From the NCBI RefSeq assembly GCF_014518425.1, contig NZ_JACVCU010000004.1, positions 496,001 through 560,000 on the forward strand: 64,000 nucleotides of DNA, given 5' to 3'. This DNA is from Terrabacter sp. MAHUQ-38 (GTDB taxonomy: Bacteria; Actinomycetota; Actinomycetes; Actinomycetales; Dermatophilaceae). Within the stretch, counting starts at the first letter, position 1; each line of letters opens with the position of its first letter. The notes below the pieces were generated by a model. That model saw only the letters and a list, made by a program, of their open reading frames with translations, was not told the DNA's origin and did not search any database. This document shows positions 2,102-24,585 of the stretch, one piece after another. The position numbers were made by a program, and so were the translations under genes.

Positions 2102-2105
<4 letters not shown>

Positions 2106-3794: not shown

Positions 3795-3830
3795 TTCCAC
3801 TATGTGGATATTGAGTTCCACTCAGAGGAA
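3795..3830. promoter_or_regulatory. Tandem 15-bp operator pair A, upstream of xdhAB
   Basis: TTCCACTATGTGGAT (3795-3809) and TTCCACTCAGAGGAA (3816-3830) are imperfect palindromes of the form TTCC-N7-GGAW, starting 21 bp apart. They lie about 170 bp upstream of xdhA, and the second overlaps the stop codon of allE. The same motif and spacing recur at 11692, 17241 and 18672, each before a purine-catabolism unit. The cognate regulator (possibly an AllR-like IclR protein) is not in the window. Confidence 0.75.
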
Positions 3831-4661
3831 GTGTCGGGAGAGCTTTGCGTGCCGGTTCACGTCCTTGTAGAGCAGGTACCTGAAGCGGCCCGGCCCGCCC
3901 GCGTAACAGGCCTGGGGGCAGAAGGCGCGCAGCCACATGAAGTCGCCGGCCTGGACCTCGACCCAGTCCTTGTTGAGCAGGTAGACGGCCTTGCCCTCGA
4001 GCACGTAGAGGCCGTGCTCCATGACGTGCGTCTCGGGGAAGGGGATCACCCCACCCGGCTCGAAGGTGACGATCGTGACGTGCATGTCGTGGCGTACGTC
4101 GAGCGGGTCGACGAAGCGCTGGGTCGACCACGCGCCGTTCGTGCCGGGCATCGGGCTGGCGTCGACGTCGCGCTCGTGCGTGACGAAGGCCTCGGGCGGG
4201 TCGATGCCGTCGACGGGCTCGTACGCCTTGCGGATCCAGTGGAACGTCGCAGGCTCCGCCGCCTCGTCGTCGACCCGCAGCGTCCAGCGCGCCCCGGCTG
4301 GAAGGTACGCGTAGCCGCCGGCCTCCATGAGGTGCTCGTCCAGACCCACCTTCAGCCGCAGCGAGCCACTGACGACGAACAGCACTCCCTCCGCGCCGGG
4401 GTCGGGCTCCGGCTTGTCACTGCCTCCACCGGGTGAGACCTCGACGACGTACTGCGAGAACGTCTCGGCGAACCCTGACAGCGGCCGCGCGATGATCCAC
4501 GTGCGCGTCTTCTCCCAGAAGGGCAGCGCACTCGTGACGATGTCGCGCATCGTCCCGCGCGGCAGAACGGCATACGCCTCCGTGAAGACGGCCCGGTCGG
4601 TCGTGAGGTCGGTCTGCGGCGGCAGCCCGCCCGACGGGGAGTAGTAGCTCGGCTCGGTCAT
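3822..4661 (-). CDS. allE: (S)-ureidoglycine aminohydrolase, bicupin
   Basis: Likely (S)-ureidoglycine aminohydrolase, a manganese-dependent double-cupin enzyme that releases ammonia from ureidoglycine to give (S)-ureidoglycolate in allantoin degradation. The 279-residue product has two cupin halves; the second contains [16 protein letters not shown], whose His and Glu residues fit the metal-binding cupin motif, and the C-terminal KLSRHFL resembles family members. The length is close to E. coli AllE. The ATG at 4661 overlaps the allB stop as ATGA. The reading frame stays open far upstream through allB, but that extension is ignored because the overlap start matches the family N-terminus. This is the last gene of the unit that begins with hyi. 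Its substrate-forming partner, allantoate amidohydrolase, is not seen here. Confidence 0.9.
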
Positions 4662-6022
4662 GCGTCTCCTCTCCACAACAGCCGCCCACGCGGCGCTGCG
4701 TCGACGTCCACGGGTGTGCCGTGCAGCCAGGTCTGGCGGACGACGCCCGTGAGCGTGCGGCCGGCGTACGCCGACACGGGGTTCTTGTGGTGCAGTGCGG
4801 CCGGTTCGACGACGAACTCGTCGTCGGGGGCGAACACGGCGAGGTCGGCGTCCATGCCGACGGCGATACGTCCCTTGGTCGTGAGGCCGACCTGAGCGGC
4901 CGGGGCCTCGGCCATCCACCGGACGACGTCGGGCAGGCCCAGGCCGCGGGCCCGGGCACCGGTCCACGTCGCGGCGAGGCCGAGCTGGAGTCCGGCGATG
5001 CCGCCCCAGGCCTTGCCGAAGTCGCCGCTGTCGAGGGCCTTGAGGTCGACGGTGCACGGCGAGTGGTCGGTGACGACGAGGTCGATGTCGCCGCGGATGA
5101 GCCCGTCCCAGAGGCGGTCCCGGTTGGTGGCCTCGCGGATCGGGGGGCAGCACTTGAACTCGGTCGCGCCGTCGGGGATCTCCTCGGCGGTGAAGGTGAG
5201 GTAGTGCGGGCAGGTCTCGACGCTGAGTGCGACGCCGTCGTCGCGGGCCGAGCGGATCATCGGGAGCGCGTCGGAGCTCGACAGGTGGAGCACGTGTGCC
5301 CGCGCGCCGGTCCAGCGAGCCAGCTCGATGACCTGGGCGACGGCGAGGTTCTCGGCGCCGCGCGGGCGCGAGTGGAGGAAGCCGGCATACGCCCTGCCGT
5401 CGGCCGGATGCGCGTGCTCTATGGCGTGCGGGTCCTCCGCGTGCACGATCATGAGCGCCCCCAGGCGGGCCGTCTCGCGCATGGCCGCCTCGAAGTCGTC
5501 GGGCGGGAGGTGAGGGAACTCGTCGACGCCGGAGTGCAGCAGGAAGCACTTGAAGCCGAACACGCCCTCGTCGTGGAGGGGGGCGAGGTCCTCGAGGTTG
5601 CCCGGCACCGCGCCGCCCCAGAAGCCGACGTCGACGAACGCCTGGCTGCGCGCGACGTCGCGCTTCGCCTCCAGCGCGCGGACGCTCGTCGTGGGAGGGA
5701 CGGAGTTGAGGGGCATGTCGACGATCGTCGTGACCCCACCGCGGGCGGCGGCACGGGTGGCGCTCGTGAAGCCCTCCCACTCGGTGCGGCCGGGCTCGTT
5801 GACGTGCACGTGAGTGTCGACCAGGCCCGGAAGGAGCACCTCGTCGGGTGCGAGGTCGACGACGGCGCGTGCCTCCAGCGTGCCCGCGGCGGGCTCGAGG
5901 TCGTCGAGCGCGTCGGCCGTGCGGACCTCGACCACGCGCTCGCCCCGCAGCCCGATGACCGCGGCCGTGACGCGTCCGTCGATGACGGCGCGGGGTGCGC
6001 GGATCAGCGTGTCGAGAGCCAT
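4658..6022 (-). CDS. allB: Allantoinase
   Basis: Allantoinase, an amidohydrolase-superfamily enzyme that opens the hydantoin ring of allantoin to allantoate. The 454 residues carry the usual binuclear metal ligands: [18 protein letters not shown] near residue 67, the lysine of [14 protein letters not shown] that is normally carboxylated, [17 protein letters not shown] and the aspartate in VTDHSPC. It starts at an ATG lying inside the 3' end of the FAH-family gene (19-bp overlap), and its stop overlaps the allE start. It therefore belongs to the continuous hyi-to-allE unit. Dihydropyrimidinase is the main alternative, but the neighbours and the N-terminal metal motif favour allantoinase. Confidence 0.93.
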
Positions 6023-6921
6023 GCGGGCGACTCCTTCCTCGTGCCTTCGTGTCCGACCGTATGCCGTGTGGCCCGGATCGGGGAGCAGTGTCGACCGAGT
6101 GGCCCGCCGTCCACCTCGACGAGGTCGCCGTCACGCAGGTACGGGCGGGGCTCGGGCGAGGCCATCGCGACGCCCGCAGGGGTGCCGGTGATGACGACGT
6201 CGCCGGGTTCGAGGGTCATCAGGGCGCTGACGTACGAGAGCGACTCGCCGACACCGAGGACGAGGTCGTCGGTCGTTCCGTCCTGGCGTCGCTCGCCGTT
6301 CACGTCGAGACGCAGACGCAGGGCACTCCCGTCCGGCGCCGGCAGCCCGTCCGGCGTGACGAGCCACGGGCCCAGGGGGCAGTATGTGTCGGCGGACTTG
6401 CCCTTCGTCCACGTGCCACCCCGCTCGAGCTGCAGGTCGCGGTCCGTCAGGTCGTTGGCGAGGGCGTAGCCCGCAACGCCGGCCACGGCCTCGGCAGGGG
6501 TGGCGCGCGTCAGCCGGCGACCCACGACGACCGCGAGCTCGACCTCGTGGTCCGTCGTGGTGGACCCGGGGAGGAGGCGGACCGCGTCGCCCGGGCCGCA
6601 CAGCGCGCTGGTCGCCTTGAGGAACACGACGGGTTCGGTCGGCACCGGTACGCCGATGGCGGCCGCGTGGTCGCGGTAGTTGAGGCCGATCCCGACGAGC
6701 TTGCCGGGCCGTGCCACGGGCGGTCCGAGACGGAGTCGGCCGTGTCGTCGCGCGGGAGCGAGGCGGCCGAGCTCGAGCGCCTCGCGTGCAGCGGGGATCC
6801 CGTCGGCAAGGAAGGCAGCATCGATGTCGGCCGTCATCGTCGAGAGGTCCAGCAGGGCTCCCTCCGGCGTGACGACGACCGGCCGCTCGGACCCCGGAGG
6901 ACCGACCCGGGCGAACCTCAT
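6004..6921 (-). CDS. Fumarylacetoacetate hydrolase-family protein, candidate ureidoglycolate lyase
   Basis: A 305-residue member of the FAH superfamily, whose members cleave or decarboxylate 2-oxo acids or related hydroxy acids using a divalent metal. [13 protein letters not shown], the acidic metal-ligand segment around [11 protein letters not shown], and [12 protein letters not shown] are typical. It is coupled on both sides: its start overlaps the glxK stop as ATGA, and its stop lies inside allB. FAH-type proteins in purine clusters are often annotated as ureidoglycolate lyase, giving glyoxylate and urea. That fits the gap between allE and gcl here, but the assignment is an inference from context. 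A generic acylpyruvate hydrolase or oxaloacetate decarboxylase-like activity remains possible. Confidence 0.82.
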
Positions 6922-8048
6922 GCCGGGGCCACCCTGAGCGACTGCGACAGGCGCCGACCGATCCGCTCCAGGGCGGGGCCGGGCGCCGCGAGGGATGCCT
7001 CGAGCGACCCGGCCTCGTCCGTCGTCGTCAGCACGTCGGCGAAGCCCGCCGCCTCCCACGTCGCACGGTCGAGGAGGCAGCGGCCGGCGACGGCGACGAC
7101 GGGCACACCTGCCGCGTGCGCGGCCGCCGCAACCGCCGCAGGCGCCTTGCCACGCAGGGTCTGCTCGTCCAGCGAGCCCTCTCCCGTGATGACGAGGTCG
7201 GCTCCGGGCAGCAGGTCGCGCAGACCGGTGAGCTCGAAGACGATCTCGGCACCCGGTCTCGCGGACGCCCCCAGCACGGCCACGAGCGCGAAGCCCACCC
7301 CACCGGCCGCCCCCGCACCCGGCACGTCGCGCAGGTCCCGGCCGGTCGAGGCGGCCACGACGTCGGCCCAGTGGCCGAGGGCCGTGTCGAGCCGCTCGAC
7401 GTCGTCGGCATCGGCGCCCTTCTGCGGTCCGTAGACCGCTGCCGCGCCGTGCGGCCCGGTGAGCGGGTTGTCCACGTCGCAGGCAACGGCGATCTCGACC
7501 TCGCCGAGCCGAGGGTGCAGGCCGGTGAGATCGAGCGTCAGCACCTCGTCGAGCGCGGCGCCGCCGTCACCGACGGGCAGGCCGTCGGCGTCCAGGGTGC
7601 GGGCCCCGAGAGCGGCCAGCAGACCGGCCCCACCGTCGGTGCTGGCGCTGCCGCCGATGCCGACGACGATGCGACGGCATCCGGCGTCGAGGGCCGCGGC
7701 GATGACCTCACCGGTGCCGCGGCTCGTCGACCTGAGCGGCGCGGGACGTCCCTCGGGAAGACGGGTCAGACCACTCACGTCGGCGAGCTCGACGACCGCG
7801 TCGTCGCCGCGTCGGGCCCACGAGGTCGCCACCGGCACTCCCGTGGGTCCACTGGCCCGGACCGGGACGCTGTCGAACCCGGCCGCGACGGCGGCGGCGA
7901 CGGTGCCGTCGCCGCCGTCCGCGATCGGGACCATGACGGCGTCGACGCCGGGGCAGCCCGCGCGGACGCCGGCCTCGACGTACGACGCGACGACGGCTGC
8001 GGTCAGCGTGCCCTTGAACTTGTCCGGGGCGATGACGACTCGGGGCAT
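6918..8048 (-). CDS. glxK: Glycerate kinase
   Basis: Glycerate kinase of the GarK/GlxK type (376 residues), phosphorylating D-glycerate so that carbon from glyoxylate enters glycolysis. The N-terminus VVIAPDKFKGTLTA, the phosphate-binding GIGGSASTDGGAG and VITGEGSLDEQT are family signatures. It starts 19 bases after gcl and overlaps the next gene by four bases. In this locus it completes the glycerate pathway (Gcl, GlxR, GlxK) for the glyoxylate released from allantoin. Confidence 0.94.
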   Translation of the reverse strand: MPRVVIAPDKFKGTLTAAVVASYVEAGVRAGCPGVDAVMVPIADGGDGTVAAAVAAGFDSVPVRASGPTGVPVATSWARRGDDAVVELADVSGLTRLPEGRPAPLRSTSRGTGEVIAAALDAGCRRIVVGIGGSASTDGGAGLLAALGARTLDADGLPVGDGGAALDEVLTLDLTGLHPRLGEVEIAVACDVDNPLTGPHGAAAVYGPQKGADADDVERLDTALGHWADVVAASTGRDLRDVPGAGAAGGVGFALVAVLGASARPGAEIVFELTGLRDLLPGADLVITGEGSLDEQTLRGKAPAAVAAAAHAAGVPVVAVAGRCLLDRATWEAAGFADVLTTTDEAGSLEASLAAPGPALERIGRRLSQSLRVAPA

Positions 8049-8067
8049 GGGAGGTCCTTGGCCGGTC

Positions 8068-9846
<1,779 letters not shown>

Positions 9847-9924
9847 GTTCGTGTCCTTGCGTGGGCCACCCCACGGCATACGGCTGCTGTGCGGGCCGGA
9901 TGCCGTCGGGCGGGGGTCTGTCGG

Positions 9925-10809
9925 TCAGGCGGGCTGTTGGCCCGAGAGGCGCTGCACACCGCGGAGCAGGCCGGAGTGGTCGAGGCCGCCGTCGCCGTTG
10001 GCGCGGGCCGCGGCCATGAGTGTCGCGACGAGGTTGCCGAGAGGGAGTACGACTCCTGCCTCGCGCGCGGCCGAGCTGACGATGCCCATGTCCTTGTGGT
10101 GCAGGTCGATCCGGAAGCCCGGGTCGAACGAGTCGGTCAGCATGTTGTCGCGCTTCTGCTCCAGCACCTTCGAGCCGGCGAGTCCGCCGCCGAGGACGGT
10201 GAGGGCCGCGTCCAGGTCGACGCCGTAGGCGCGGAGGAACACGACGGCCTCCGCGAGGGCCTGGATGTTCGCCGCCACGATGAGCTGGTTCGCGGCCTTG
10301 ACGGTCTGGCCGGCGCCGTTGCCGCCGACGTGGACGACGGTGCCGCCGACGGTGTCGAGGATCGGCTTCGCCTCGGCATAGTCCTCGGCGGAGCCGCCGA
10401 CCATGATCGACAGGGTCGCGTTGCGCGCCCCGGCCTCGCCGCCGGAGACGGGTGCGTCGAGGAGGCGGAAGCCCTTGGCGGCGGCCTCTGCCGCGAGGTC
10501 CGCTGTGACGTCGGGACGGATCGACGAGAAGTCGACGACGAGCGTGCCGGGCTCGGCGTTCGCGAACACGCCGTCGTCCCCGGTCAGGACCGCCTGGACG
10601 TCGGGGGAGTCGGGCACCATGACGGCGACGACGTCGGCGGCCTTGACCGCCTCGGCGATCGAGTCGGCGCCGCGCCCTCCGGCCTCGACGAGGGGGCCGT
10701 AGCGGTCGGGCGTCAGGTTGTAGCCGACGACGTCGTAGCCGGCCTGGGCCAGGTGCACGGACATCGGGCTGCCCATGATGCCGAGTCCGATGAAGGCGAT
10801 GGTGGTCAT
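9925..10809 (-). CDS. glxR: Tartronate semialdehyde reductase (2-hydroxy-3-oxopropionate reductase)
   Basis: NAD(P)H-dependent reductase of the 3-hydroxyisobutyrate dehydrogenase family, converting tartronate semialdehyde to D-glycerate. The 294 residues show the Rossmann motif IGLGIMGSPM at the N-terminus, the substrate-binding DAPVSGGEAGA near residue 119 and the catalytic lysine K171 in NGAGQTVKAANQL. AAGGAG stands just before the ATG at 10809. It sits 16 bases after hyi and before gcl. Related family members act on hydroxyisobutyrate or succinic semialdehyde, but the placement beside gcl and glxK makes this role very likely. Confidence 0.93.
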   Translation of the reverse strand: MTTIAFIGLGIMGSPMSVHLAQAGYDVVGYNLTPDRYGPLVEAGGRGADSIAEAVKAADVVAVMVPDSPDVQAVLTGDDGVFANAEPGTLVVDFSSIRPDVTADLAAEAAAKGFRLLDAPVSGGEAGARNATLSIMVGGSAEDYAEAKPILDTVGGTVVHVGGNGAGQTVKAANQLIVAANIQALAEAVVFLRAYGVDLDAALTVLGGGLAGSKVLEQKRDNMLTDSFDPGFRIDLHHKDMGIVSSAAREAGVVLPLGNLVATLMAAARANGDGGLDHSGLLRGVQRLSGQQPA

Positions 10810-10825
10810 GTCGATCTCCTTGGGG

Positions 10826-11683
10826 TCAGTGCGATGTCTGGGTAGCGGAGGCGGTGAGCCACGCGAGGCTCTCGACCGTCGAGGTCGTCGGCGTGTACTC
10901 GAGGCCGACCCAGCCGGTGTAGCCGTGGTCGACGAGGGCTTCGAGGTGGCGGTCGAGCTCCAGCCGCCCCGACCCCGGCTCGCCTCGGCCGGGCCAGTCG
11001 GCCACCTGCACATGGGCGACCCGGTCGGCGTATGCCGCAACCGCGCTGTCGAGGTCGTCGCCGTTGTTGGCCAGGTGGAAGAGGTCGAGCAGGAAGCCGA
11101 CGTTGGCAGCCCCAGCGGCCCGCACGTCATCGACGACCCGGACGGCGTCGGCGGCCGTGCGCAGCGGGTAGGGCTTGGGACCGCTGACGGCCTCGACGAG
11201 GACCGCCGCGCCGATGCGTTCGGCCGCGTGGGCGGCGGCGATGATGCTCTCCCGTGCCAGCGCGTCCTGCTCGGCGGGCGTGGAGTTCTCTACCCGGTTG
11301 CCGTAGAGCGCGTTGAACGCGCCGACGCCGAGGCGCTCGCCGATGCCGACGGCGACATCGATGTTGTCCCGGAACTGGCTCACCCGGGAGGGTATGGAGA
11401 GCACTCCGCAGTCGGCACCGGCCAGGTCGCCGGCGAAGAAGTTGAGCCCGGCCAAGCGCACACCGGCGTCCTCGACGGCCCGGACGAGGTCCTCGACCGC
11501 GCGGTCGCCGGGGACCGGCTGCTCGGGCCACGGCCACCAGAGCTCGATCGTGTCGAAGCCGGCGTCGCGGGCCGCCTGCGGGCGCTCGAGGAGGGGCAGC
11601 TCGGTGAAGAGCATCGAGCAGTTGGCGAGGAAGCGCAGGCCGGCGGGGGTGGTCGGGGCGCCGGGGGGCGGGTTGGTCGTCAT
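10826..11683 (-). CDS. hyi: Hydroxypyruvate isomerase
   Basis: Predicted hydroxypyruvate isomerase, interconverting hydroxypyruvate and tartronate semialdehyde. The 285-residue product is an AP-endonuclease-2-like TIM barrel. It has LANCSMLFTELPLLER at the N-terminus and conserved acidic and His residues around LVEAVSGPKPYPL and DLFHLANNGDD. The ATG at 11683 has GGAAG about seven bases upstream. That sequence belongs to operator pair B, so repressor binding would sit directly against the leader. It is the first gene of the seven-gene unit ending with allE. A related sugar-phosphate isomerase/epimerase cannot be excluded, but Gcl and GlxR are immediate neighbours. Confidence 0.88.
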   Translation of the reverse strand: MTTNPPPGAPTTPAGLRFLANCSMLFTELPLLERPQAARDAGFDTIELWWPWPEQPVPGDRAVEDLVRAVEDAGVRLAGLNFFAGDLAGADCGVLSIPSRVSQFRDNIDVAVGIGERLGVGAFNALYGNRVENSTPAEQDALARESIIAAAHAAERIGAAVLVEAVSGPKPYPLRTAADAVRVVDDVRAAGAANVGFLLDLFHLANNGDDLDSAVAAYADRVAHVQVADWPGRGEPGSGRLELDRHLEALVDHGYTGWVGLEYTPTTSTVESLAWLTASATQTSH

Positions 11684-11691
11684 TTCATCAC

Positions 11692-11727
11692 TTCCGTAAT
11701 GTGGAAACTAATTTCCGATATGCAAAA
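11692..11727. promoter_or_regulatory. Tandem 15-bp operator pair B, upstream of hyi-gcl-allB unit
   Basis: TTCCGTAATGTGGAA (11692-11706) is a near-perfect TTCC-N7-GGAA palindrome nine bases upstream of the hyi start. TTCCGATATGCAAAA (11713-11727) keeps the left arm and ATGC core but has lost the right GG. Start-to-start distance is 21 bp, as at the other three sites. The flanking sequence is AT-rich compared with the surroundings, as expected of a promoter. Confidence 0.75.
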
Positions 11728-11847
11728 CTGTACGGATGGGCCTCGAGCGCGGTCAAGCCCCCGCGGGAAGTGTCTCGCCGACTGGTCGTCGTGCCGTGCC
11801 GTCGTGACGACGCCAACGGGCATGACATCCGCCGGCGGGTCTTCAGC

Positions 11848-11868
11848 GCCGCCCGATCACCGGGCGGC
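11848..11868. terminator. Hairpin downstream of the uricase operon
   Basis: GCCGCCCG and CGGGCGGC form a perfect 8-bp stem around a 5-base loop, about 110 bp past the stop of the 8-oxoguanine deaminase gene and before the hyi promoter region on the same strand. There is no T-run, so it is a candidate GC-rich actinobacterial terminator only. Apart from this and operator pair B, I see nothing in the 292 bases between the two genes. Confidence 0.45.
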
Positions 11869-11975
11869 CTTGCGCGCCAGCCGTGTTCGTCCAGCACAGG
11901 CGAGCGGCACACGGCATGCGTCATGCGCGGGTGAGGGGTCGTCGCCATCCCTGCGACGAACCTCCTCCCGGGAGG

Positions 11976-13358
11976 TCAGACCAGGACGCCGGTCCGGGTC
12001 AGCAGGCGGGTGCTCGCGGAGCGCAGAGCGGTGCCGAGCGCTTCCTCGGACACAGTGGTCAGGCGGTCTTCGGAGACGACGGTGCGCCCGCCGACGAGCA
12101 GGAGGGCGAGCGGCGGTCGATCCCCGAGGACCAGTCCGGCGACGGGGTCGACGATGTCGCCGTGTGCGAGGCCGTCAACCCGCCACAGGGCGATGTCGGC
12201 GAGCTTGCCCGACTCGAGGGAGCCGATCTGGTCGTCCCAGCCGAGCACCCGGGCGCCTCCGATCGTCGCGAGCTCGAGGGCGTCGCGGATCCCGAGGGTC
12301 GTCGGGCCGCCGACGGCGCGGGCGAAGAGGAGGGCGTGGCGCGCCTCTTCGAGCATCGAGGACGACTCGTTGGACGCCGGCCCGTCGACGCCCAGACCCA
12401 CCGGCACCCCTGCGTCACGAAGCGCACGCGTGCGAGCGATGCCGGCACCGAGCCGGGCGTTCGACGACGGGCAGTGGGCGACACCGCTTCCCGTGCGGGC
12501 GAGAGTGTCGACCGCGGCGTCGTCGAAGTGGATGCCGTGGGCGAACCACACGTCGTCGCCGAGCCAGCCGACCGACTCCATGTACTCGACCGGCGTCATG
12601 CCGAAACGGTCGCGGCAGTAGTCGGCCTCGTCGGTCGTCTCGGCGAGGTGCGTGTGCAGCCGGACGTTCCGGCTCCGGGCCAGGGCGGCCGACTCACGGA
12701 GCAGGTCGCCCGTCACGGAGAACGGTGAGCAGGGCGCGAGCCCGACGCGCACCGTCGCATCCGGAGACGGGTCGTGGTGCCGGTCGATGGCCTCCACGCT
12801 GGCCGCGAGGATCGCGTCGAGGTCCTCGACGACGTGGTCGGGCGGTAGACCGCCCTGCGACCGGCCGAGGTCCATCGAGCCACGCGTCGCGAGGAAGCGC
12901 ACGCCGACCTCTCTCGCCGCGGCCACCTCGGCACCGAGGGGGTCGCCGCCACCGTGCGGGAAGACGTAGTGGTGGTCCATCGACGTCGTGCAGCCGGTGC
13001 GGGCGAGCCAGCCGAGACCGGCCGACGCCGCCGCATGGGTCACGTCCTCGTCGATGCCGCCCCAGACGGGGTACAGCGTCGTGAGCCACTCGAAGAGCGT
13101 CGAGTCGCACGCCAGTCCGCGCGTCGCCCACTGGTAGAGGTGGTTGTGCGTGTCGACGAGGCCAGGGGTGGCCACGCAGCCGCGGGCGTCGACGACGCGG
13201 ACCGGGCGGCCCGCGTCGTCGGGCGTGGCGGCGTACGGTCCCGACCCGACGGCAGTGATCCGCGTGCCGTCGACCACGACGTGGCCCGTGGCGTGCTCGG
13301 TGCGCGCCGGGTCCATCGTCACCACGGTGCAACCGTCGAGGACGATCCGCTCCGCCAC
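11976..13358 (-). CDS. 8-oxoguanine deaminase (amidohydrolase superfamily)
   Basis: Zinc amidohydrolase of 460 residues, most like 8-oxoguanine deaminases and the related hydroxydechloroatrazine hydrolases. His71 and His73 lie in GLVDTHNHLYQW, followed by SMDHHYVFPHGGG, RGSMDLGRSQGG, HTHLAETTDE and GLGVDGPASNES. The RGSMDLGRSQGGLPPD segment is what I associate with 8-oxoguanine deaminase. The reaction turns 8-oxoguanine into urate and ammonia, which feeds the uricase three genes upstream. The start is a GTG three bases after the hiuH stop. It is the last gene of the uricase unit. Guanine deaminase or another aminohydrolase is the alternative. Confidence 0.82.
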   Translation of the reverse strand: MAERIVLDGCTVVTMDPARTEHATGHVVVDGTRITAVGSGPYAATPDDAGRPVRVVDARGCVATPGLVDTHNHLYQWATRGLACDSTLFEWLTTLYPVWGGIDEDVTHAAASAGLGWLARTGCTTSMDHHYVFPHGGGDPLGAEVAAAREVGVRFLATRGSMDLGRSQGGLPPDHVVEDLDAILAASVEAIDRHHDPSPDATVRVGLAPCSPFSVTGDLLRESAALARSRNVRLHTHLAETTDEADYCRDRFGMTPVEYMESVGWLGDDVWFAHGIHFDDAAVDTLARTGSGVAHCPSSNARLGAGIARTRALRDAGVPVGLGVDGPASNESSSMLEEARHALLFARAVGGPTTLGIRDALELATIGGARVLGWDDQIGSLESGKLADIALWRVDGLAHGDIVDPVAGLVLGDRPPLALLLVGGRTVVSEDRLTTVSEEALGTALRSASTRLLTRTGVLV

Positions 13359-13361
13359 GGC

Positions 13362-13688
13362 TCAGCTGCCCCGGTAGGTGGAGTAGCCGAACGGGTTGAG
13401 CAGCAGGGGCACGTGGTAGTGCTCGTCGGCGTCGCCCACGGTGAAAGCGATCGTCACCTCGGGGTAGAAGCCACGGGTCCCGGTCGCCGCGAACCAGGCG
13501 CCGGTGTCGAAGCGGAGCCGGTAGTCGCCGGCGTCGAGCCGATCGGGGCCGATGGACGTGATGCGTCCGTCGGCGTCCGTGGTGCCGGTGCCCAGACCCT
13601 CCCCGGTGGCCGACTCGAGGGCGACCGTGAGCGCCTGCGCTGGCCGTCCGGTGCTCGTGTCGAGGACGTGGGTCGAGAGCGTGCCCAT
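13362..13688 (-). CDS. hiuH: 5-hydroxyisourate hydrolase (transthyretin-like)
   Basis: Second enzyme of urate breakdown, hydrolysing 5-hydroxyisourate to OHCU. The 108-residue protein has the catalytic N-terminal STHVLDTSTGRPA (His7), a DAGDYRLRFDTGAWFAATG strand region and HYHVPLLLNPFGYSTYRGS at the C-terminus. The YRGS ending distinguishes the enzyme from the thyroid-hormone carrier transthyretin. Its ATG overlaps the uraD stop, and the deaminase gene follows at once. There is no signal peptide, so it acts in the cytoplasm. Confidence 0.95.
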   Translation of the reverse strand: MGTLSTHVLDTSTGRPAQALTVALESATGEGLGTGTTDADGRITSIGPDRLDAGDYRLRFDTGAWFAATGTRGFYPEVTIAFTVGDADEHYHVPLLLNPFGYSTYRGS

Positions 13689-14236
13689 CAGAGCACCGCC
13701 TCGAGCCGCAGCAGCGCGATCTCGCGCAGCTGGTCGACCGTCTCGGCCCGCTCGGTCTCGTCCCCGTTGTCCAGGCGTCTGCGCAGCTCGGCGAGGATCT
13801 GGTGTGCGCTGCGGCCCGCGGCGCGGATGAGGAAGACGCGGTCGAAGCGCTCCTCGTACGCCGCGTTGCCCGCCGCCAGCGCCGCCCTGACCTCGGCGTC
13901 GGCCGGGTCGACACCCGCCTGCTCACGCGCCGAGAGCTCGGCGTGGTGCTGCGGGTCGCTGGCGCGTTCACCGATCCGCGGGTGCCCGGCGAGCGCCGAG
14001 GCGAGCTCGGCGTCGTCGAGGTGGCGGGCTGCTCGGTCGGCGGCCTCGAACACGGCTTCACGGGCGGCATACGGACGCCCCGCAAGCACGTCGTCGGCCC
14101 AGCGGCCGACGCCGAGGCAGGCGAGCAGGCGTGGCCGGAGCGTGGCGGCCGGCTCCTCGTTGAAGGCGTCGAGGGCCCCCGCGGGCGAGGTCGCCGCGTC
14201 GGCGGCGGACGCGCTGGTGTCGGTCCGGTTGCTCAT
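13688..14236 (-). CDS. uraD: OHCU decarboxylase (stand-alone)
   Basis: Third enzyme of urate degradation, decarboxylating OHCU to S-allantoin. The product has 182 residues with an Ala/Thr-rich leader of about 30. The fold markers are present: the catalytic histidine in LAGHPRIGERA, the glutamate exactly 20 residues later in SAREQAGVD, and NAAYEERFDRVFLIRAAGRS followed by ILAELRRRLDNGDETE. The start ATG overlaps the permease stop (ATGA). A second OHCU-like domain, lacking these two residues, is fused to that permease, so this protein is probably the working decarboxylase. Confidence 0.92.
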   Translation of the reverse strand: MSNRTDTSASAADAATSPAGALDAFNEEPAATLRPRLLACLGVGRWADDVLAGRPYAAREAVFEAADRAARHLDDAELASALAGHPRIGERASDPQHHAELSAREQAGVDPADAEVRAALAAGNAAYEERFDRVFLIRAAGRSAHQILAELRRRLDNGDETERAETVDQLREIALLRLEAVL

Positions 14237-16188
14237 GCCATCTGGTCCACGTCGACGATGGGCGTGCGCGCGCTGTGGATGGGGTTGGCGTCGGCGACGA
14301 GGTCGTCGAACCGGTAGGCGGCGATCTTCGAGATCTCGACGAGGGCCGCGGCGTGCTCCTGGCTGGGGGAGTTGTTGAGGCGTTCCCAGCCGTGACGCAG
14401 GACCTGTGCGTAGGAGTCGCGGTCTCGCACGCACGTGACGAGCGCGAAACCGAAACGCTCACGGTACTGGCGCGTCAGCTCGGCGAGCTCGACGTGGTCC
14501 TTCTCGTCGAGCCGTGTCAGGCCCAGGCTCGCCTGGTCGCGCAGCGAGTCCTCGCCCTCGTCGCCGCCCGCCACGCTCTCCGCGCCGAGGTCCGGGTACG
14601 AGTCGATGAGCGCCAGCTGCTCTTCGGTCGTGGCGGAGAAGAGGGCCTCCTGGAACGCCTGGCGCAGGTCCTTCGTGTCGGCGAACGGGCGCTGGTCGTA
14701 GGCGCGCTCGACGACCCAGGTCGGCCCCTGGAACAGGCTGCCGAAGGTGTCGACGAACTGCTCGCGCGTCATCTCGTTGACCTCGCTGAGCCGGATCAGG
14801 GAGCCGGGCGTGCCTGCCACCGCGGGGCCGCGCCTCGAGCCGACGTGGTGGAAGACGATGTTGAGCACGATCGCCGTGATGCTTCCCAGCGTGATGCCCG
14901 AGCCGAGGATGATCTGCGCCCAGTCGGGCACGGCCTTCGCGACATCCGGCTGCGCGGTGACGTACATCGCGAGCCCGACGCTCGTACCGACGATGACGAC
15001 GTTGCGGTGGTCGTGGAAGTCGACGCGCGACAGGGTCTGGAACCCGACGACGGCGACGGTGGCGAACATCGCGAGCGCGGCGCCGCCGAGCACGGCGTGC
15101 GGGATGCCGGCGACGAGCGCCCCGGCCTTGGGGATCAGGCCGATGACGATCATGATCGCGCCGGCCATCGCCACGACGTAGCGGCTCTTGACCCGGGTCA
15201 GTCGCACGAGCCCGACGTTCTCGGCGAAGCACGTGTACGGGAAGGAGTTGAAGACGCCGCCGATCGTCGTGGCCAGGCCGTCGGCCCGCAGTGCACGCGC
15301 GATGTCCTCGCGCTCGATGCGCTTCTCGACGATCTCGCCGGTGGCGAAGACGTCCCCGGTCGTCTCGACCGCGGTGATCAGCATGACCACGACCATCGAG
15401 ATGATGGCCGCGACCGAGAACTTCGGCCAGCCGAAGTAGAACGGCGTGGTCACCCCGAACCAGCCCGAGGTCGAGACGTCGGAGAAGTGCGCGTCACCGA
15501 GCAGCCACGCGACGAGGGTGCCCGCGACGAGGCCGACGAGCACGGCGACCGTGGCCATGAAACCCTTGAAGACGCGCTGGATCACGACGATGAGCGCGAG
15601 GGTCCCGAGGGCGTACGCCATGTTGCGCCCGCTCGTCGGGTCGAGGGTGGGCCCCGCGCCGCCGACGGCATCGGCCGCGGCGACGGGCAGCAGCGCGATG
15701 CCGATGATGGTGATGACTGAGCCGGTGACGACCGGCGGGAAGAAGCGGATCAGACGGCTGAAGTACGGGGCGACGAAGAAGGTGAACAGGCCCGCGACGA
15801 TGACGGCGCCGTAGATGACGAGCAGCCCCTCGGTGCCGCCGCCTGCGGCGAGGCCGATGGCGATCATGGGGGACACGGCCGTGAACGTCACGCCCTGCAG
15901 GAGCGGGAGGCGGACGCCGATCTTCCAGAAGCCGACCGACTGGATGATCGAGGCGATGCCGCACGTGAAGAGGTCGGCGTTGATGAGGTGGATGAGCTCC
16001 TGGGTCGACAGGTCGATCGCGCTCGCGAGCAGGATGGGCACGATCACGGCGCCGGCGTAGAAGGCCAGGACGTGTTGGAAGCCGTAGACGAAGAGCTTCG
16101 GCGCGGGCAGGACCTCGTCGACGGGGTGACGGGACCTGCGGGGACGCGGGGACGGGGCCTGCGCGGCTCCGGTGGCAGTGGTGGTCAT
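14233..16188 (-). CDS. NCS2 urate/xanthine permease fused to a degenerate OHCU decarboxylase domain
   Basis: Fusion of 651 residues. Residues about 25-460 form a nucleobase-cation symporter-2 (NCS2) transporter with many membrane segments. Its signatures are QSVGFWKIGVRLPLLQG and NSFPYTCFAENVGLVRLTR, the latter typical of urate and xanthine carriers. From about residue 466 the chain is an OHCU-decarboxylase-like domain (LSEVNEMTREQFVDTFG, RERFGFALVTCVRDRD, WERLNNSPSQEHAAAL). Where active enzymes have His and, 20 residues later, Glu, this domain has Tyr531 (SYPDLG) and Asp551 (RDQAS). It follows uricase by 21 bases and overlaps uraD. The permease probably brings urate in; the tail may be a scaffold or pseudoenzyme. 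The fusion type is known in actinobacteria, but I cannot tell how widespread the substitutions are. Confidence 0.9.
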   Translation of the reverse strand: MTTTATGAAQAPSPRPRRSRHPVDEVLPAPKLFVYGFQHVLAFYAGAVIVPILLASAIDLSTQELIHLINADLFTCGIASIIQSVGFWKIGVRLPLLQGVTFTAVSPMIAIGLAAGGGTEGLLVIYGAVIVAGLFTFFVAPYFSRLIRFFPPVVTGSVITIIGIALLPVAAADAVGGAGPTLDPTSGRNMAYALGTLALIVVIQRVFKGFMATVAVLVGLVAGTLVAWLLGDAHFSDVSTSGWFGVTTPFYFGWPKFSVAAIISMVVVMLITAVETTGDVFATGEIVEKRIEREDIARALRADGLATTIGGVFNSFPYTCFAENVGLVRLTRVKSRYVVAMAGAIMIVIGLIPKAGALVAGIPHAVLGGAALAMFATVAVVGFQTLSRVDFHDHRNVVIVGTSVGLAMYVTAQPDVAKAVPDWAQIILGSGITLGSITAIVLNIVFHHVGSRRGPAVAGTPGSLIRLSEVNEMTREQFVDTFGSLFQGPTWVVERAYDQRPFADTKDLRQAFQEALFSATTEEQLALIDSYPDLGAESVAGGDEGEDSLRDQASLGLTRLDEKDHVELAELTRQYRERFGFALVTCVRDRDSYAQVLRHGWERLNNSPSQEHAAALVEISKIAAYRFDDLVADANPIHSARTPIVDVDQMA

Positions 16189-16209
16189 GGTGTCGATGCC
16201 CTTTCGGGG

Positions 16210-17130
16210 TCAGCAGAAGCCGGGGGTTGCGAGCCAGGCCTCGGGAGCGGCCGGCACGTCGTCGCGCAGCACGGTCGCCTCGATGAGGCCGTAGGGGCGG
16301 TCGGCGGCGATGAAGACCTCGCCGTTGTTCTCGACGTCCGGGAAGGCGGAGAAGTCGACGAGGAAGTGGTGCTTGTTGGGAGCGGAGAACCGGATCTCGG
16401 CGATGTCGGGATGCCGCTCCAGCACGGCTTGGCCCATGGCGTGCAGGGTCTCCTGCAGGGCGCGGCTGTACGTCGTCGCGAAGACCTCGAGCAGCGTCTC
16501 GCGGACGCTCTCGAACGACTTGTTCCAGTCGGTGTCGGTGCCCACGTGGCGCCACCGAGCGACGAGCGACGTGGCGAGGATGCGGTCGTCGGTCTCGGCG
16601 AGGGTCGTGTACTCGTCCTTGAGGTAGCCCTTGAACTCCGAGCCCGTCGACTTGAGGACGACCAGGTCCGTGAGGCCGGAGACGACGTGCGTCGCCCGCT
16701 CGCCGGTCGCCTCGTCGCCCGAGCGCTCGACCGTGACGACCGTGGTGCGCGTGTCGCCGCCCCGGCGCACGAAGGCGTGGTCATGGCCGGTGTCGCCGAC
16801 CGGGATGCGATCCCACAGGTACTGCTCGACCTCGATCCGTGCGCCGGTGGCCGCGGGTGCGGCGTCGAGGAAGCGGCCGGCGAGGGCGAGCGCGTAGTCC
16901 TCGAGGGAACTGACGCCGTGCTTCTTGGCGTAGACGAAGGCGGTGTTCTTCTGCGTGTCCGTGGGGAGGATCTTCGACTGGTCGCCCGTGACGTGCGCGT
17001 CGTCGAAGTCACCGCGGAGCGACGTCGACACGTTGAGGTCGACGATCTCGTGGCGGGCGGTGTCGCGCGTGATGCGCACCACCCGGTTCTCAGCCTTGCC
17101 GTACTGGTTCGGACCCAGAACGATGCTCAT
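16210..17130 (-). CDS. uox: Urate oxidase (uricase)
   Basis: Cofactor-free uricase converting urate and O2 to 5-hydroxyisourate and H2O2. The 306-residue product has two T-fold halves, with active-site LPTDTQKNT (Thr57, Asp58), an N-terminal lysine at residue 12 (QYGKAENRV) and NKHHFLVDFSAF in the second half. It ends in GFC rather than a peroxisomal signal, as expected for a bacterium. GGAG lies seven bases before the ATG at 17130. It leads the unit uox-permease-uraD-hiuH-deaminase and has operator pair C about 110 bp upstream. Confidence 0.96.
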   Translation of the reverse strand: MSIVLGPNQYGKAENRVVRITRDTARHEIVDLNVSTSLRGDFDDAHVTGDQSKILPTDTQKNTAFVYAKKHGVSSLEDYALALAGRFLDAAPAATGARIEVEQYLWDRIPVGDTGHDHAFVRRGGDTRTTVVTVERSGDEATGERATHVVSGLTDLVVLKSTGSEFKGYLKDEYTTLAETDDRILATSLVARWRHVGTDTDWNKSFESVRETLLEVFATTYSRALQETLHAMGQAVLERHPDIAEIRFSAPNKHHFLVDFSAFPDVENNGEVFIAADRPYGLIEATVLRDDVPAAPEAWLATPGFC

Positions 17131-17240
17131 GTTTCAACTCCGTTGTCGATGGCTGGCGGTTCTGTTCGCGACGGTGCTTCCCATCAGGGTGCCGTGGTTG
17201 TGGTCGCGGTGGAGTGGTGTTGCGACTCCAGTGTCTAGGA

Positions 17241-17276
17241 TTCCATGATGCGGAATTAATTTATCGAATAACGGAA
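17241..17276. promoter_or_regulatory. Tandem 15-bp operator pair C, upstream of uricase unit
   Basis: TTCCATGATGCGGAA (17241-17255) is a clear palindrome. The sequence 21 bp on, TATCGAATAACGGAA (17262-17276), keeps the CGGAA right arm and a weak left arm. The pair sits in an AT-rich stretch about 110 bp upstream of uox. Confidence 0.72.
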
Positions 17277-17339
17277 GAATAGGCGGGGTCCACCGACGGC
17301 GTCAACGCTGCCGGCGAGCCGTCTCGCGTGCCGGGCGCC

Positions 17340-18653
17340 TCAGGCGCGGCGGGCGAGCCGGGCCAGGCCGGAGCGGGCGAGGCCGCACCTCCGGACCGCG
17401 TCGTCCTCGTCGAGGGCGCCGCAGTCGAGTCCACGCAGGACGAAGTCGGCGAGGGCGCGCGCAGTGGCCGGCTCATCCATGAACGCGGACTCACGCTGGG
17501 CGACGTAGTCGTGGAGGCGCGTCGCGGCGCTCTCGAAACCCTTGCGGTAGAAGGAGAACGCGGCGGCATACCGGGTCGGAAGCTGCGCCGGGTGCAGGTC
17601 CCACCCCTGGTAGTAGCCGCGCGCGAGGGAGCGGCCGACGAGCCGGTGGTGCAGGGCCCAGGCCGCGGCGACCGACTCGGGTCCGCCGACGGGGATGACG
17701 TTCGTCGACCCGTCGGAGAGCCGGACGCCCGTCTCGGCCGCGGCCACCTGCATGACGGACTTGGCGTGGTCGGCAGCGGGGTGGTCCATGGCCTGGAACT
17801 CGGCCGCGATGCCGAGGGACGCCGAGTAGTCGTAGGTGCCGTAGTGCAGCCCGGTGCAGCGACCGGCGGCCGCGTGGACCATCCGGGCGACGAGCGCCGT
17901 ACCGTCGGGACCGAGGATCGACTGCGGCGTCTCGACCTGGATCTCGAAGCCGAGCGGCGACGTCAGTCCGACACCGGCCTCGATCCGCTCGGCGGCCAGC
18001 ACCATCGCCTCGACCTGGTCGACGCTCGTCACCTTCGGCAGCGTGACCACGAATCCCGTTGGGAGGGAACCCTCCTCGCAGATCTGCTCGAGGAAACGGA
18101 CCAGGGTGCGAAGGCCGCGCCGCCGCGTCGGCACCTCGAACGACTTGAAGCGGATGCCCGTGAAGGGAGGGGCCGTGCCCTGCTCCATGGACGAGCGCAG
18201 CTCTCGGGCTGCCCGGTCGACGGCCGTGTCCTCCTCTGCGTCCGGGCGGGCGCCGTACCCGTCCTCGAAGTCGATCCTGAGGTCCTCGACCGGCTCGGTC
18301 GCGAGCTTGCGGCGGACCACCTCCTCCAGGGCTGCGTCCCCGACGATGCGGGCGAACTCGTCGTGGTGCAGGTCGATGGCGGCGGTCGCCTCGGAACCCC
18401 AGGCCGCTGTGAGGCCGGCGTCGTAGCGGTCGGCCGGGACATAGACGGTGTGCACGGGCTGGCGACCTGCCCGGGGCCCGGGGAAGCGACGGGTCAGGTC
18501 CGCGTCCGCGTCACGCAAGCGCTCGTCCAGCGCATCGGCGAGCGCAGCCACGTCGACTCCCGTCTCCTCGAGTGCGGTGGACGGGTTGGGCGCCTGGCGG
18601 TCGGTGTCGGGCGCTGCCCCGTGGGCTCGGCGGTCGGTGGGCTGGGTCGGCAT
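17340..18653 (-). CDS. CitE-like aldolase, DUF6986 type, in purine regulon
   Basis: Protein of 437 residues resembling the HpcH/HpaI aldolase-citrate lyase (CitE) superfamily and the actinobacterial DUF6986 group. Support comes from a TIM-barrel-like pattern with LRIDFEDGYG (likely acidic metal ligands), GFVVTLPKVTSVDQVEAM, GFEIQVETPQSILG and GLHYGTYDYSASLG. Superfamily members make or break C-C bonds next to a carboxylate using Mg2+, often with glyoxylate, pyruvate or acyl-CoA. The ATG at 18653 has GAGGAG about seven bases upstream and operator pair D 19 bases upstream. Sharing the purine operator suggests that it uses glyoxylate or another allantoin-derived acid, but the reaction is unknown. 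The Pro/Arg/Ala-rich first 25 residues look disordered. Confidence 0.72.
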   Translation of the reverse strand: MPTQPTDRRAHGAAPDTDRQAPNPSTALEETGVDVAALADALDERLRDADADLTRRFPGPRAGRQPVHTVYVPADRYDAGLTAAWGSEATAAIDLHHDEFARIVGDAALEEVVRRKLATEPVEDLRIDFEDGYGARPDAEEDTAVDRAARELRSSMEQGTAPPFTGIRFKSFEVPTRRRGLRTLVRFLEQICEEGSLPTGFVVTLPKVTSVDQVEAMVLAAERIEAGVGLTSPLGFEIQVETPQSILGPDGTALVARMVHAAAGRCTGLHYGTYDYSASLGIAAEFQAMDHPAADHAKSVMQVAAAETGVRLSDGSTNVIPVGGPESVAAAWALHHRLVGRSLARGYYQGWDLHPAQLPTRYAAAFSFYRKGFESAATRLHDYVAQRESAFMDEPATARALADFVLRGLDCGALDEDDAVRRCGLARSGLARLARRA

Positions 18654-18671
18654 GGCTCAACTCCTCAAAGA

Positions 18672-18707
18672 TTCTGTCGTGCGGATAATAACTTCTGCGA
18701 TGTGGAA
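18672..18707. promoter_or_regulatory. Tandem 15-bp operator pair D, upstream of the CitE-like aldolase
   Basis: TTCTGTCGTGCGGAT (18672-18686) and TTCTGCGATGTGGAA (18693-18707) start 21 bp apart. They stand between the divergent aldolase gene (start 18653) and universal stress protein gene (start 18811). The closeness to 18653 points to control of the aldolase. Confidence 0.75.
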
Positions 18708-23814: not shown

Positions 23815-24585
23815 TCAGTTCGCGAGCAGGGCCTTGAGCGTCGCGCGCTCGGAGGGGGGCACGTAGCTGGCGTAGTAGTCGTAGAGGCTGTGGAGGGACG
23901 CGTGCGCCGCCGCCGGGCCGTCGCCTTCACGGATGGCGGTGAGCACCTGCTCGTGGTGGGTCAGCGATCGCTTCATGAGCGCCTTCGAGTTGCGTGCGTG
24001 GGCGATCTTGTCGGAGATGAGCGACAGGACGGTGTCGCGCACGACGGCGTTGCTCACCTGGATGAGCGTGTTGCCGCTCGCGCGGGCGATGGCCTCGTGG
24101 AAGGCGAAGTCGGCCTCGCTGAACGACGTGTAGCCGCCGTTGACCGCCTCGCGCATCCGCTCGATGGCGGTCTCCATCTCGGCGAGCTGCTCGTCGGTGC
24201 GCAGGATGGCCGCGAGCCGGTTCGCCGTCGAGTCGAGCATCATCCGCGACACGAGCAGCTGCGCGAGGGTCAGGTGCTCGGCACGGGCGAGGCGGCGCAT
24301 CTGCTTCGTCAGCCCGCCGGCCGTGACAGGCAGTATCTCGGGGCCGTTGGGGTCGCCGGGTCGGGAGCGCACCACGCCGTTGCTGGACAGCACCCGCAAC
24401 GCCTCACGCACCGTGGCCCGGCTCGTTCCGAACTGCACGACGAGCTCGCGCTCGCTCGGCAGTCGCTGCCCCGGCCGCAGCTCGCCCTTGGCGATCGCCT
24501 CCTCGACCTGCTCGACGATGCGCTCGTAGAGCCGCACCGGCCGCACCTGCTCGAACCCCCGCGACTCGCCGGCCGCCTCAGTCAT
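23815..24585 (-). CDS. GntR-family regulator, FadR subfamily
   Basis: Transcription factor of 256 residues. A winged helix occupies about residues 18-85 (RLYERIVEQVEEAIAKGELR, LPSERELVVQFGTSRATVRE), followed by an all-helical FCD effector domain containing FHEAIARASGN and HHEQVLTAI with likely metal-binding His and Asp residues. FCD regulators commonly sense small carboxylic acids. It overlaps the amidase stop by eight bases, so the two are co-expressed. The perfect ACTGGTCAGACCAGT palindrome in the divergent gap has the TGGT-N-ACCA type typical of FadR-subfamily operators, so the protein probably represses both its own unit and the transporter operon. Confidence 0.9.
   Translation of the reverse strand: MTEAAGESRGFEQVRPVRLYERIVEQVEEAIAKGELRPGQRLPSERELVVQFGTSRATVREALRVLSSNGVVRSRPGDPNGPEILPVTAGGLTKQMRRLARAEHLTLAQLLVSRMMLDSTANRLAAILRTDEQLAEMETAIERMREAVNGGYTSFSEADFAFHEAIARASGNTLIQVSNAVVRDTVLSLISDKIAHARNSKALMKRSLTHHEQVLTAIREGDGPAAAHASLHSLYDYYASYVPPSERATLKALLAN

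What the first reader, a model, noticed from the sequence alone, without database searches (positions are those of the whole stretch)
3795..18707. Four tandem operator pairs with exact 21-bp spacing define a purine regulon
At 3795/3816, 11692/11713, 17241/17262 and 18672/18693 there are paired 15-mers fitting TTCYRYNATGYGGAW (TTCC-N7-GGAA palindromes, with one weaker partner in pairs B and C). Every pair has start points exactly 21 bp apart, two DNA turns, which suggests cooperative binding by two dimers or a tetramer on one face. Each pair precedes a different transcription unit: xdhAB, hyi-gcl-allB-allE, uox-permease-uraD-hiuH-deaminase, and the CitE-like aldolase. One regulator, perhaps an AllR-like IclR protein responding to allantoate, urate or glyoxylate, should control all four. 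No candidate gene is in the window.
Basis: partly seen in the sequence, partly recalled or inferred. Interest (0 to 1): 0.75.

Follow-up and report, generated by a model that had tools for sequence, protein, structure and literature searches.

The report
Purine-to-glyoxylate regulon with paired IclR/AllR operators
Four evenly spaced pairs of DNA sites mark a soil actinobacterium's purine-degradation genes as one co-regulated set, most likely under an AllR-type repressor whose gene lies just outside the window and which probably senses the end product glyoxylate; this kind of control is known, but its reach over the whole pathway and over one enzyme of unknown function is useful to learn.

Summary
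Four pairs of 15-bp palindromes lie at exactly 21-bp spacing at the stated places, far above chance. The missing regulator is probably an IclR-family gene about 4.4 kb left of the window start, divergent from malate synthase and next to guaD-xdhC-xdhB-xdhA, with one more good site in the shared intergenic region. A weight matrix made only from the window's eight sites finds 21-bp pairs beside iclR, hyi, uraD/uox and aceB in other Actinomycetes. In 389 kb of relatives, 26 site pairs lie at 21 bp and none at any other distance below 37 bp. A pair lies within 1.5 kb of uricase in 18 of 21 relatives that have the IclR gene, and in 0 of 8 that lack it. A Streptomyces orthologue (57% identical) sits among allantoinase, an allantoin-type permease, a racemase and malate synthase, also with 21-bp pairs, so this is very probably the Streptomyces AllR lineage. 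Motif type and tandem spacing are published IclR-family traits: a new member of a known kind. What is added: the regulon spans guanine/xanthine to malate, the spacing is rigid, and it takes in DUF6986, found almost only with uricase. Glyoxylate as effector and repression are inferred.

The parts
3795..3830 (.). Operator pair A: TTCCACTATGTGGAT-N6-TTCCACTCAGAGGAA, upstream of xdhA (minus strand), overlapping the 3' end of allE
11692..11727 (.). Operator pair B: TTCCGTAATGTGGAA-N6-TTCCGATATGCAAAA, 8 bp before the hyi start codon; sigma-A-like -35 TTGACC-N18-TACAGT on the minus strand, the last T of the -10 being the first base of the operator
17241..17276 (.). Operator pair C: TTCCATGATGCGGAA-N6-TATCGAATAACGGAA, 110 bp before uox; TTGACG-N18-TATTCT ends on its first base on the minus strand
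18672..18707 (.). Operator pair D: TTCTGTCGTGCGGAT-N6-TTCTGCGATGTGGAA, 18 bp before DUF6986; TTGACT-N16-TATTAT overlaps it on the minus strand
2102..3625 (-). xdhA, xanthine dehydrogenase small subunit; xdhB, xdhC and guaD follow to the left across and beyond the window edge. The IclR regulator gene lies further left at about -5243 to -4371 and malate synthase aceB, divergent from it, at about -4183 to -2561 (L018:10757-11629 minus; L018:11817-13439 plus)
   Evidence: (TIGR02963 407 bits, below its 467 cut-off)
3822..4661 (-). allE, (S)-ureidoglycine aminohydrolase
   Evidence: NF008373 496 bits, cut-off 445; NF040771 483, cut-off 350; start
4658..6022 (-). allB, allantoinase
   Evidence: TIGR03178 557 bits, cut-off 358
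6004..6921 (-). FAH-family hydrolase/lyase
   Evidence: PF01557; start
6918..8048 (-). glxK, glycerate kinase
8068..9879 (-). gcl, glyoxylate carboligase
   Evidence: TIGR01504 1162 bits
9925..10809 (-). glxR, tartronate semialdehyde reductase
   Evidence: TIGR01505; start
10826..11683 (-). hyi, hydroxypyruvate isomerase-like, first gene of unit B
   Evidence: TIGR03234 250 bits, below its 353 cut-off
11976..13358 (-). 8-oxoguanine deaminase-like amidohydrolase, last gene of unit C
   Evidence: NF006055 644 bits, cut-off 532
13362..13688 (-). hiuH, hydroxyisourate hydrolase
   Evidence: TIGR02962
13688..14236 (-). uraD, OHCU decarboxylase
   Evidence: start
14233..16188 (-). NCS2 purine permease fused to an OHCU decarboxylase domain
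16210..17130 (-). uox, urate oxidase, first gene of unit C
   Evidence: TIGR03383
17340..18653 (-). DUF6986 protein, a distant relative of malyl-CoA lyase and malate synthase, unit D

Best explanation
The four pairs are operators of one IclR-family regulator, the actinobacterial AllR lineage, whose gene lies about 4.4 kb left of the window start. Each pair binds two dimers, or one tetramer, on one face of the helix (21 bp, two turns) over the -10 element and start region of a sigma-A promoter. Without inducer the protein blocks these promoters. When purine breakdown releases glyoxylate, glyoxylate binds the C-terminal domain, weakens the tetramer and frees the promoters. The route then runs: guanine/xanthine (guaD, xdhABC), urate (uox, hiuH, uraD, permease), allantoin (allB, allE), glyoxylate disposal (hyi, glxR, gcl, glxK, aceB) and DUF6986. 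Shown by computation: the sites, their rigid spacing, their conservation beside orthologous genes, and their link to this IclR gene. Inferred: binding itself, repression rather than activation, tetramer formation, and glyoxylate as effector.
For: Sites and spacing. Regulator gene beside the regulon, with a good site (17.7 bits) in the iclR-aceB intergenic region. The window-trained matrix finds 21-bp pairs of 22 bits or more in 17 of 29 relative loci around the IclR orthologue. 61 distinct pairs were collected from relatives; 52 of 61 lie near a regulon gene, mostly iclR, uraD, hyi, uox, aceB. Rigid spacing: 29 loci, 389 kb, 99 sites, 26 pairs at 21 bp and none at any other distance below 37; 50 column-permuted matrices give 0.02 such pairs on average. 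Uricase loci: a pair within 1.5 kb in 18 of 21 relatives with the IclR gene and 0 of 8 without, p=4e-5; in 17 of these 18 it lies upstream of uox itself or of uraD heading uraD-hiuH-uox. Co-occurrence of IclR and uox: 29 genomes share both, 38 have each, of 117, p=4e-12. The motif equals the published IclR subgroup WTTYCRYW3RYGRAAW, and tandem sites 18-22 nt apart are an IclR trait tied to tetramers. The -10 ends on the first operator base at hyi and uox. Asp212, Ser239 and Ser241 of E. coli IclR, which hold glyoxylate, are conserved by my reading of the printed alignment. Glyoxylate lowers DNA binding of E. coli IclR, AllR and of BhcR (passages of PMC11323563).
Against: 12 of 29 IclR-orthologue loci (+-1.5 kb) and 5 of 16 named loci (up to +-10 kb) show no pair at 22 bits; a cut of 22 was set after seeing the scores. 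3 of 21 uox loci with the regulator have no pair, and in one more the pairs belong to hyi. The own iclR/aceB site has only a degraded partner (-3.2 bits). The Tsukamurella locus has one single site and no pair of 20 bits; the Mycolicibacterium locus has none. The Asp/Ser/Ser triad also occurs in KdgR and Thermotoga IclR, so it does not prove glyoxylate; the equivalents of Gly160 and Ala161 are Ala and Val. BhcR, the best-scoring named family, acts as an activator in vivo. A promoter was recognised in 24 of 52 oriented operators against 12 of 52 in the reverse direction, and none at xdhA. No binding data exist for this protein.
Confidence: 0.85

Rival explanations
1. Same IclR regulator and sites, but it works as an activator or dual regulator (as BhcR does in vivo), with binding increased or re-shaped by the inducer.
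For: Best named family by score is BhcR (179 bits, cut-off 350), for which activation of the bhc genes is reported. In pair D the operator lies between and over -35 and -10.
Against: At hyi and uox the operator starts at the last base of the -10; over the 24 operators with a recognised promoter this is the commonest placement, 9 of 24 including those two, which favours blocking. E. coli AllR and IclR are described as repressors.
Confidence: 0.15
2. Same regulator, but the inducer is allantoate, allantoin or urate rather than glyoxylate.
For: In Streptomyces sp. BHT-5-2 the orthologue sits among allantoin genes; allantoate acting on S. coelicolor AllR is recalled, not read here.
Against: 9 of 38 genomes with the IclR orthologue lack uox. 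The Mycolicibacterium arabiense orthologue neighbours malate synthase G and an FAD-linked oxidase, and the only purine-related gene annotated within 10 kb is a nucleoside hydrolase (the annotation table may be incomplete). Several relatives carry the pair at aceB. The shared theme is glyoxylate.
Confidence: 0.25
3. The sites belong to a different regulator, for example the GntR/FCD protein at window 23815-24672 or an unknown factor.
For: A GntR/FCD gene is in the window.
Against: No gntR or amidase relative (tblastn E 1e-15) is listed in the relatives' regions; 0 of 8 uox loci without the IclR gene carry pairs; the motif is of the IclR group-1 type. Of six other IclR loci of this genome, five score at most 1.6 bits and one 21.8.
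Confidence: 0.04
4. Chance palindromes in AT-rich promoter islands of a GC-rich genome.
For: The operators are AT-rich patches in a 71% GC window.
Against: Leave-one-out and shuffle tests, the spacing spectrum and the contrast with and without the regulator exclude it.
Confidence: 0.005

Closest known systems
AllR of Streptomyces coelicolor (Navone et al. 2015, AEM 81:6649; seen only as a title in a reference list and one citing sentence; paper not held)
   Same: An IclR-family repressor of allantoin genes (citing sentence). The Streptomyces sp. BHT-5-2 orthologue of our protein is 57% identical over 245 residues, sits by allantoin genes and malate synthase, and has 21-bp pairs between the allantoin unit and iclR and upstream of aceB.
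   Different: Here the regulon also covers guaD-xdh, uox-hiuH-uraD-permease and DUF6986. The S. coelicolor sequence, operator and effectors could not be compared here; what I know of them is recalled.
E. coli AllR
   Same: IclR fold; gcl and allantoin control; glyoxylate lowers DNA binding.
   Different: Our protein scores 90 bits against a cut-off of 406 for the AllR equivalog; E. coli AllR's listed motif is KTTGGAAWAWTWTTCCAAC.
BhcR of Paracoccus denitrificans
   Same: Best named NCBIfam match (179 bits); glyoxylate responsive.
   Different: Below the cut-off of 350; controls the beta-hydroxyaspartate cycle, partly as an activator.
IclR-family group 1 operators, type WTT-11-AAW, in tandem at 18-22 nt (Suvorova and Gelfand 2021, PMC8222616; sections 13 and 15 and passages read)
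   Same: Same consensus and tandem arrangement.
   Different: The spacing in this lineage is fixed at 21. The two sections read do not name a purine regulon; supplements were not read.

Membership tests
IclR family of transcription factors | N-terminal IclR winged helix plus C-terminal IclR effector domain | tested here: met
   PF09339 64.5 bits (cut-off 22) and PF01614 134 bits (cut-off 24)
IclR family of transcription factors | Palindromic operator of group 1 (TTYCRY-N3-RYGRAA core) | tested here: met
   Base frequencies over 61 relative pairs agree with the published consensus; genome scan
IclR family of transcription factors | Tandem operators 18-22 nt apart (94 orthologous groups) | tested here: met
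   21 nt; literature
IclR family of transcription factors | Dimer or tetramer binds the DNA | not testable with these tools
   needs a binding assay or structure
E. coli-type AllR (NF007548 equivalog) | Whole-protein score above the curated cut-off of 406 bits | tested here: not met
   89.7 bits, (query lacked the first 47 residues, which precede the domains)
BhcR (NF045644 equivalog) | Whole-protein score above the curated cut-off of 350 bits | tested here: not met
   179.2 bits, (same query)
Streptomyces AllR lineage | Orthologous IclR gene beside allantoin genes and malate synthase | tested here: met
   Streptomyces sp. BHT-5-2 plasmid p1, locus L130: allB, permease, racemase, iclR, aceB; 57% identity
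Streptomyces AllR lineage | Same operator type and spacing in Streptomyces | tested here: met
   Pairs at L130:11713 (28 bits) and 14833 (26 bits)
Streptomyces AllR lineage | Direct identity with S. coelicolor AllR (SCO6246, recalled locus tag) | not tested
   paper not held; the sequence was not obtained
Streptomyces AllR lineage | Released by glyoxylate and/or allantoate | not testable with these tools
   only pocket residues compared

The most novel reading that the evidence does not exclude
The regulon points to a missing enzyme: DUF6986 is a dedicated, uncharacterised glyoxylate- or ureidoglycolate-handling enzyme of bacterial purine breakdown. It has its own operator pair; it has a strong match (E below 1e-100) in 31 of 117 genomes, of which 30 have uricase; it looks like a distant member of the malyl-CoA lyase/malate synthase superfamily; and the known ureidoglycolate lyase family PF04115 is found in none of the 117 genomes. 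It could be the ureidoglycolate lyase of these bacteria or a new glyoxylate-condensing enzyme.
Probability: 0.45. Interest if true: 0.6.

Novelty: new member of a known kind. Interest (0 to 1): 0.38.

Why it matters
It joins, in one testable circuit, the route from guanine and xanthine to malate and glycerate in Actinomycetes, under a regulator probably induced by the end product of the pathway. The fixed 21-bp spacing, with almost no pairs at neighbouring distances, makes this lineage a clean system for asking whether IclR tetramers need exact helical phase. The regulon gives DUF6986, a family with no paper in the searched library, a pathway and a list of substrates to try.

Tried and rejected
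Tried and led nowhere or was dropped. (2) AlphaFold2 of DUF6986 from three sequences gave mean pLDDT 59. The Foldseek list is headed by malyl-CoA lyases and malate synthases, but with rmsd of 10-22 Angstrom; it agrees with the sequence match (malyl-CoA lyase, E=0.0034) and proves nothing alone. (3) AllC at G000:C1:1342665 (NF006770 551 bits) has no site within 1.5 kb, so one pathway step lies outside the detected regulon. (4) PF04115 matched none of 117 genomes, so it could not separate genomes with and without DUF6986. (5) The GntR/FCD gene in the window was considered as regulator and rejected. (6) An E. coli-type AllR label was rejected on score. (7) In one search my aceB query was out of frame; it was corrected, and aceB hits are not used as counts. 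(8) A literature search for IclR, uricase, glyoxylate, operon and xanthine dehydrogenase together returned no paper; no title or abstract start in the other listings describes this regulon. The library lacks most subscription papers, so this is not proof of absence in print.
Full report
WHAT IS THERE. A palindromic weight matrix from the eight sites ranks these four as the best 21-bp pairs of the window (31.5-41.0 bits, the next 11.7). Because that is circular, I left each pair out in turn: the matrix from the other three ranks the omitted pair first in 4 of 4 cases, with runner-ups at 11.5 bits or less. In 200 dinucleotide shuffles the best pair reached 16.0 bits at most. The stated consensus fits only 4 of 8 sites exactly, and each pair has one partner that departs from it.

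GENES. All four units run on the minus strand: xdhA (xdhB-xdhC-guaD continue beyond the window edge); hyi-glxR-gcl-glxK-FAH-allB-allE; uox-permease-uraD-hiuH-8-oxoguanine deaminase; and a DUF6986 protein. Operon limits are inferred from packing. Operators end 8 (hyi), 18 (DUF6986), 110 (uox) and 169 bp (xdhA) before the start codon.

THE REGULATOR. The window is G000:C13:496001-560000 of a 5.16-Mb genome. A search for the IclR C-terminal domain lists 8 matches; one lies at C13:490781-491281, minus strand. The gene (L018:10757-11629 minus, 290 aa, HTH_IclR plus IclR_C) is about 4.4 kb left of the window start, divergent from malate synthase A (L018:11817-13439, TIGR01344 750 bits), beyond which lie guanine deaminase, xdhC, xdhB and xdhA. 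The shared intergenic region holds one strong site, TTCCGTATGATGAAA (17.7 bits), with a degraded partner (-3.2 bits).

TEST IN RELATIVES. Of 117 genomes, 38 (own included) have a match above 170 bits; the next matches score below 130, so I set the cut there (several genomes have two such genes, so the group may hold co-paralogues). The window-trained matrix finds 21-bp pairs of at least 22 bits in 17 of 29 relative loci around the IclR orthologue (+-1.5 kb) and in 11 of 16 named genome loci (up to +-10 kb). The 11 come from Humibacillus, Intrasporangium, Nocardioides, Nocardia, Pseudonocardia, Mycobacteriaceae and others. The 5 of 16 misses are L110, L113, L115, L118 (contig cut at the gene) and L124 (39% identity, alphaproteobacterial). 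At least two named loci are the same contigs as unnamed ones (L110/L060, L112/L059), so these sets overlap. 61 distinct pairs were collected, 52 of 61 within -60 to +600 bp of a recognised gene: iclR 15, uraD 15, hiuH 11, hyi 9, uox 8, aceB 5, and glxK 2, DUF6986 2, xdhA 1, permease 1 (one pair can count for more than one gene).

SPACING. In 29 non-overlapping relative loci (389,005 bases), 99 sites of 12 bits or more give 26 pairs at exactly 21 bp and none at any other distance below 37; 50 column-permuted matrices give 12.7 sites and 0.02 pairs at 21 on average. In a larger, partly overlapping set of 64 loci the count is 53 at 21, 0 at 19, 20, 22, 23 and 24, and 1 each at 18, 25 and 26.

WITH AND WITHOUT THE REGULATOR. 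38 of 117 genomes have uricase; loci were returned for the best 30 of 38. With an IclR orthologue, 18 of 21 relatives have a pair of 22 bits or more within 1.5 kb of uox; without, 0 of 8 (p=4e-5). The cut was set after seeing the scores, but no locus falls between 5.8 and 22.6 bits. In 17 of the 18 the pair lies upstream of uox or of uraD heading uraD-hiuH-uox; in the other (L102) the pairs lie at hyi. Misses with the regulator: L088, L103, L104. Co-occurrence over 117 genomes: IclR with uox 29 shared, 9 and 9 alone, p=4e-12; IclR with DUF6986 28 shared, 10 and 3 alone, p=2e-15; uox with DUF6986 30 shared, 8 uox only, 1 DUF6986 only, p=2e-19. DUF6986 here means a match with E below 1e-100 (31 genomes); 40 of 117 match at E 0.001, the other 9 by partial, weak matches. 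Genomes are related, so these are not independent trials.

HOW IT LIKELY WORKS. The motif is the published IclR group-1 subtype WTTYCRYW3RYGRAAW (section read). Tandem palindromes with centres 18-22 nt apart occur in 94 orthologous groups and are attributed to tetramers with dimers on one face of the DNA (passages). At hyi and uox a sigma-A-like promoter (TTGACC-N18-TACAGT, TTGACG-N18-TATTCT) ends its -10 on the first operator base; at DUF6986 TTGACT-N16-TATTAT lies over the pair; at xdhA none met the rule. Over 52 oriented operators a promoter was found in 24, with the -10 ending on operator base 1 in 9 of 24 (the commonest placement, hyi and uox of the window included), against 12 of 52 in the reverse direction. 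This position suggests blocking of transcription. In E. coli IclR glyoxylate favours dimers and release from DNA; AllR and BhcR binding also falls with glyoxylate (passages of PMC11323563). Reading the alignment with E. coli IclR against the residue table by eye, Asp212, Ser239 and Ser241 are conserved, Gly160 and Ala161 are Ala and Val; since other IclR proteins share the triad, this is weak support. Gene content points to glyoxylate: in Mycolicibacterium arabiense the orthologue sits by malate synthase G and an FAD-linked oxidase (no site found there), and 9 of 38 genomes with the regulator lack uox.

RELATION TO KNOWN SYSTEMS. A Streptomyces orthologue (57% over 245 aa) lies among allB, an allantoin-type permease, a racemase and malate synthase, with 21-bp pairs next to iclR and upstream of aceB. 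This is very probably the lineage of S. coelicolor AllR; that paper was seen only as a reference title and through one citing sentence and is not held; further details are recalled. The protein fails the curated cut-offs for E. coli AllR (89.7 of 406) and for BhcR (179.2 of 350). So: a new, extended member of a known kind.

DUF6986. Its Pfam family has no function; phmmer gives malyl-CoA lyase at E=0.0034; conserved stretches such as TLPKV, FEIQVETPQ, LHYGTYDYSA and GWDLHPAQLP (window protein) resemble, from memory, the metal and substrate motifs of that superfamily. Tsukamurella tyrosinosolvens has it next to allE, guaD and xdh, with the IclR orthologue nearby and one single site but no pair. 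It is the most open part of this regulon.

Noticed in passing
L066:13436, L070:3943, L080:1262, L081:1362, L086:2256, L116:6079, L119:9154, L120:9217, L061:1290, L062:1493, L113:1837, L115:2021: A second conserved palindrome, TCAACANNNTGTTGA, overlaps the -35 (TTGAC) upstream of uraD/uox operons and lies upstream of xdhA in relatives: 14 of 125 loci, some overlapping. It is absent from the window at up to 1 mismatch. Probably a second, unidentified purine regulator.
   Followed up: partly
window 14233-16188 and 13688-14236: An NCS2 purine permease is fused to an OHCU decarboxylase domain (TIGR03164 above its cut-off), next to a separate UraD of the other subtype (TIGR03180); two decarboxylase domains in one operon.
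   Followed up: no
window 17340-18653; 117 relatives: DUF6986 has strong matches (E below 1e-100) in 31 of 117 genomes, 30 of them with uricase; no paper in the library names the family.
   Followed up: partly
G000 against G001-G008 (same genus): None of eight same-genus genomes has uox or DUF6986 and only G001 (74% complete) has the IclR orthologue: the block is patchy within the genus, by loss or transfer.
   Followed up: no
L026:3092-3127 (G000:C1, near 109,600): Another IclR gene of this genome has its own imperfect 21-bp pair (21.8 bits) nearby, a similar arrangement for a paralogue.
   Followed up: no
window 3795-3830 and 3822: Operator pair A overlaps the last codons of allE.
   Followed up: no
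G000:C1:1342665-1343846: The allantoate amidohydrolase gene is unlinked and has no site within 1.5 kb; PF04115 ureidoglycolate lyase matched none of the 117 genomes searched, so the step from ureidoglycolate to glyoxylate has no assigned enzyme here.
   Followed up: partly
window 23815-26008: A GntR/FCD regulator next to an amidase; neither is listed in the relatives' regions (for the families).
   Followed up: partly
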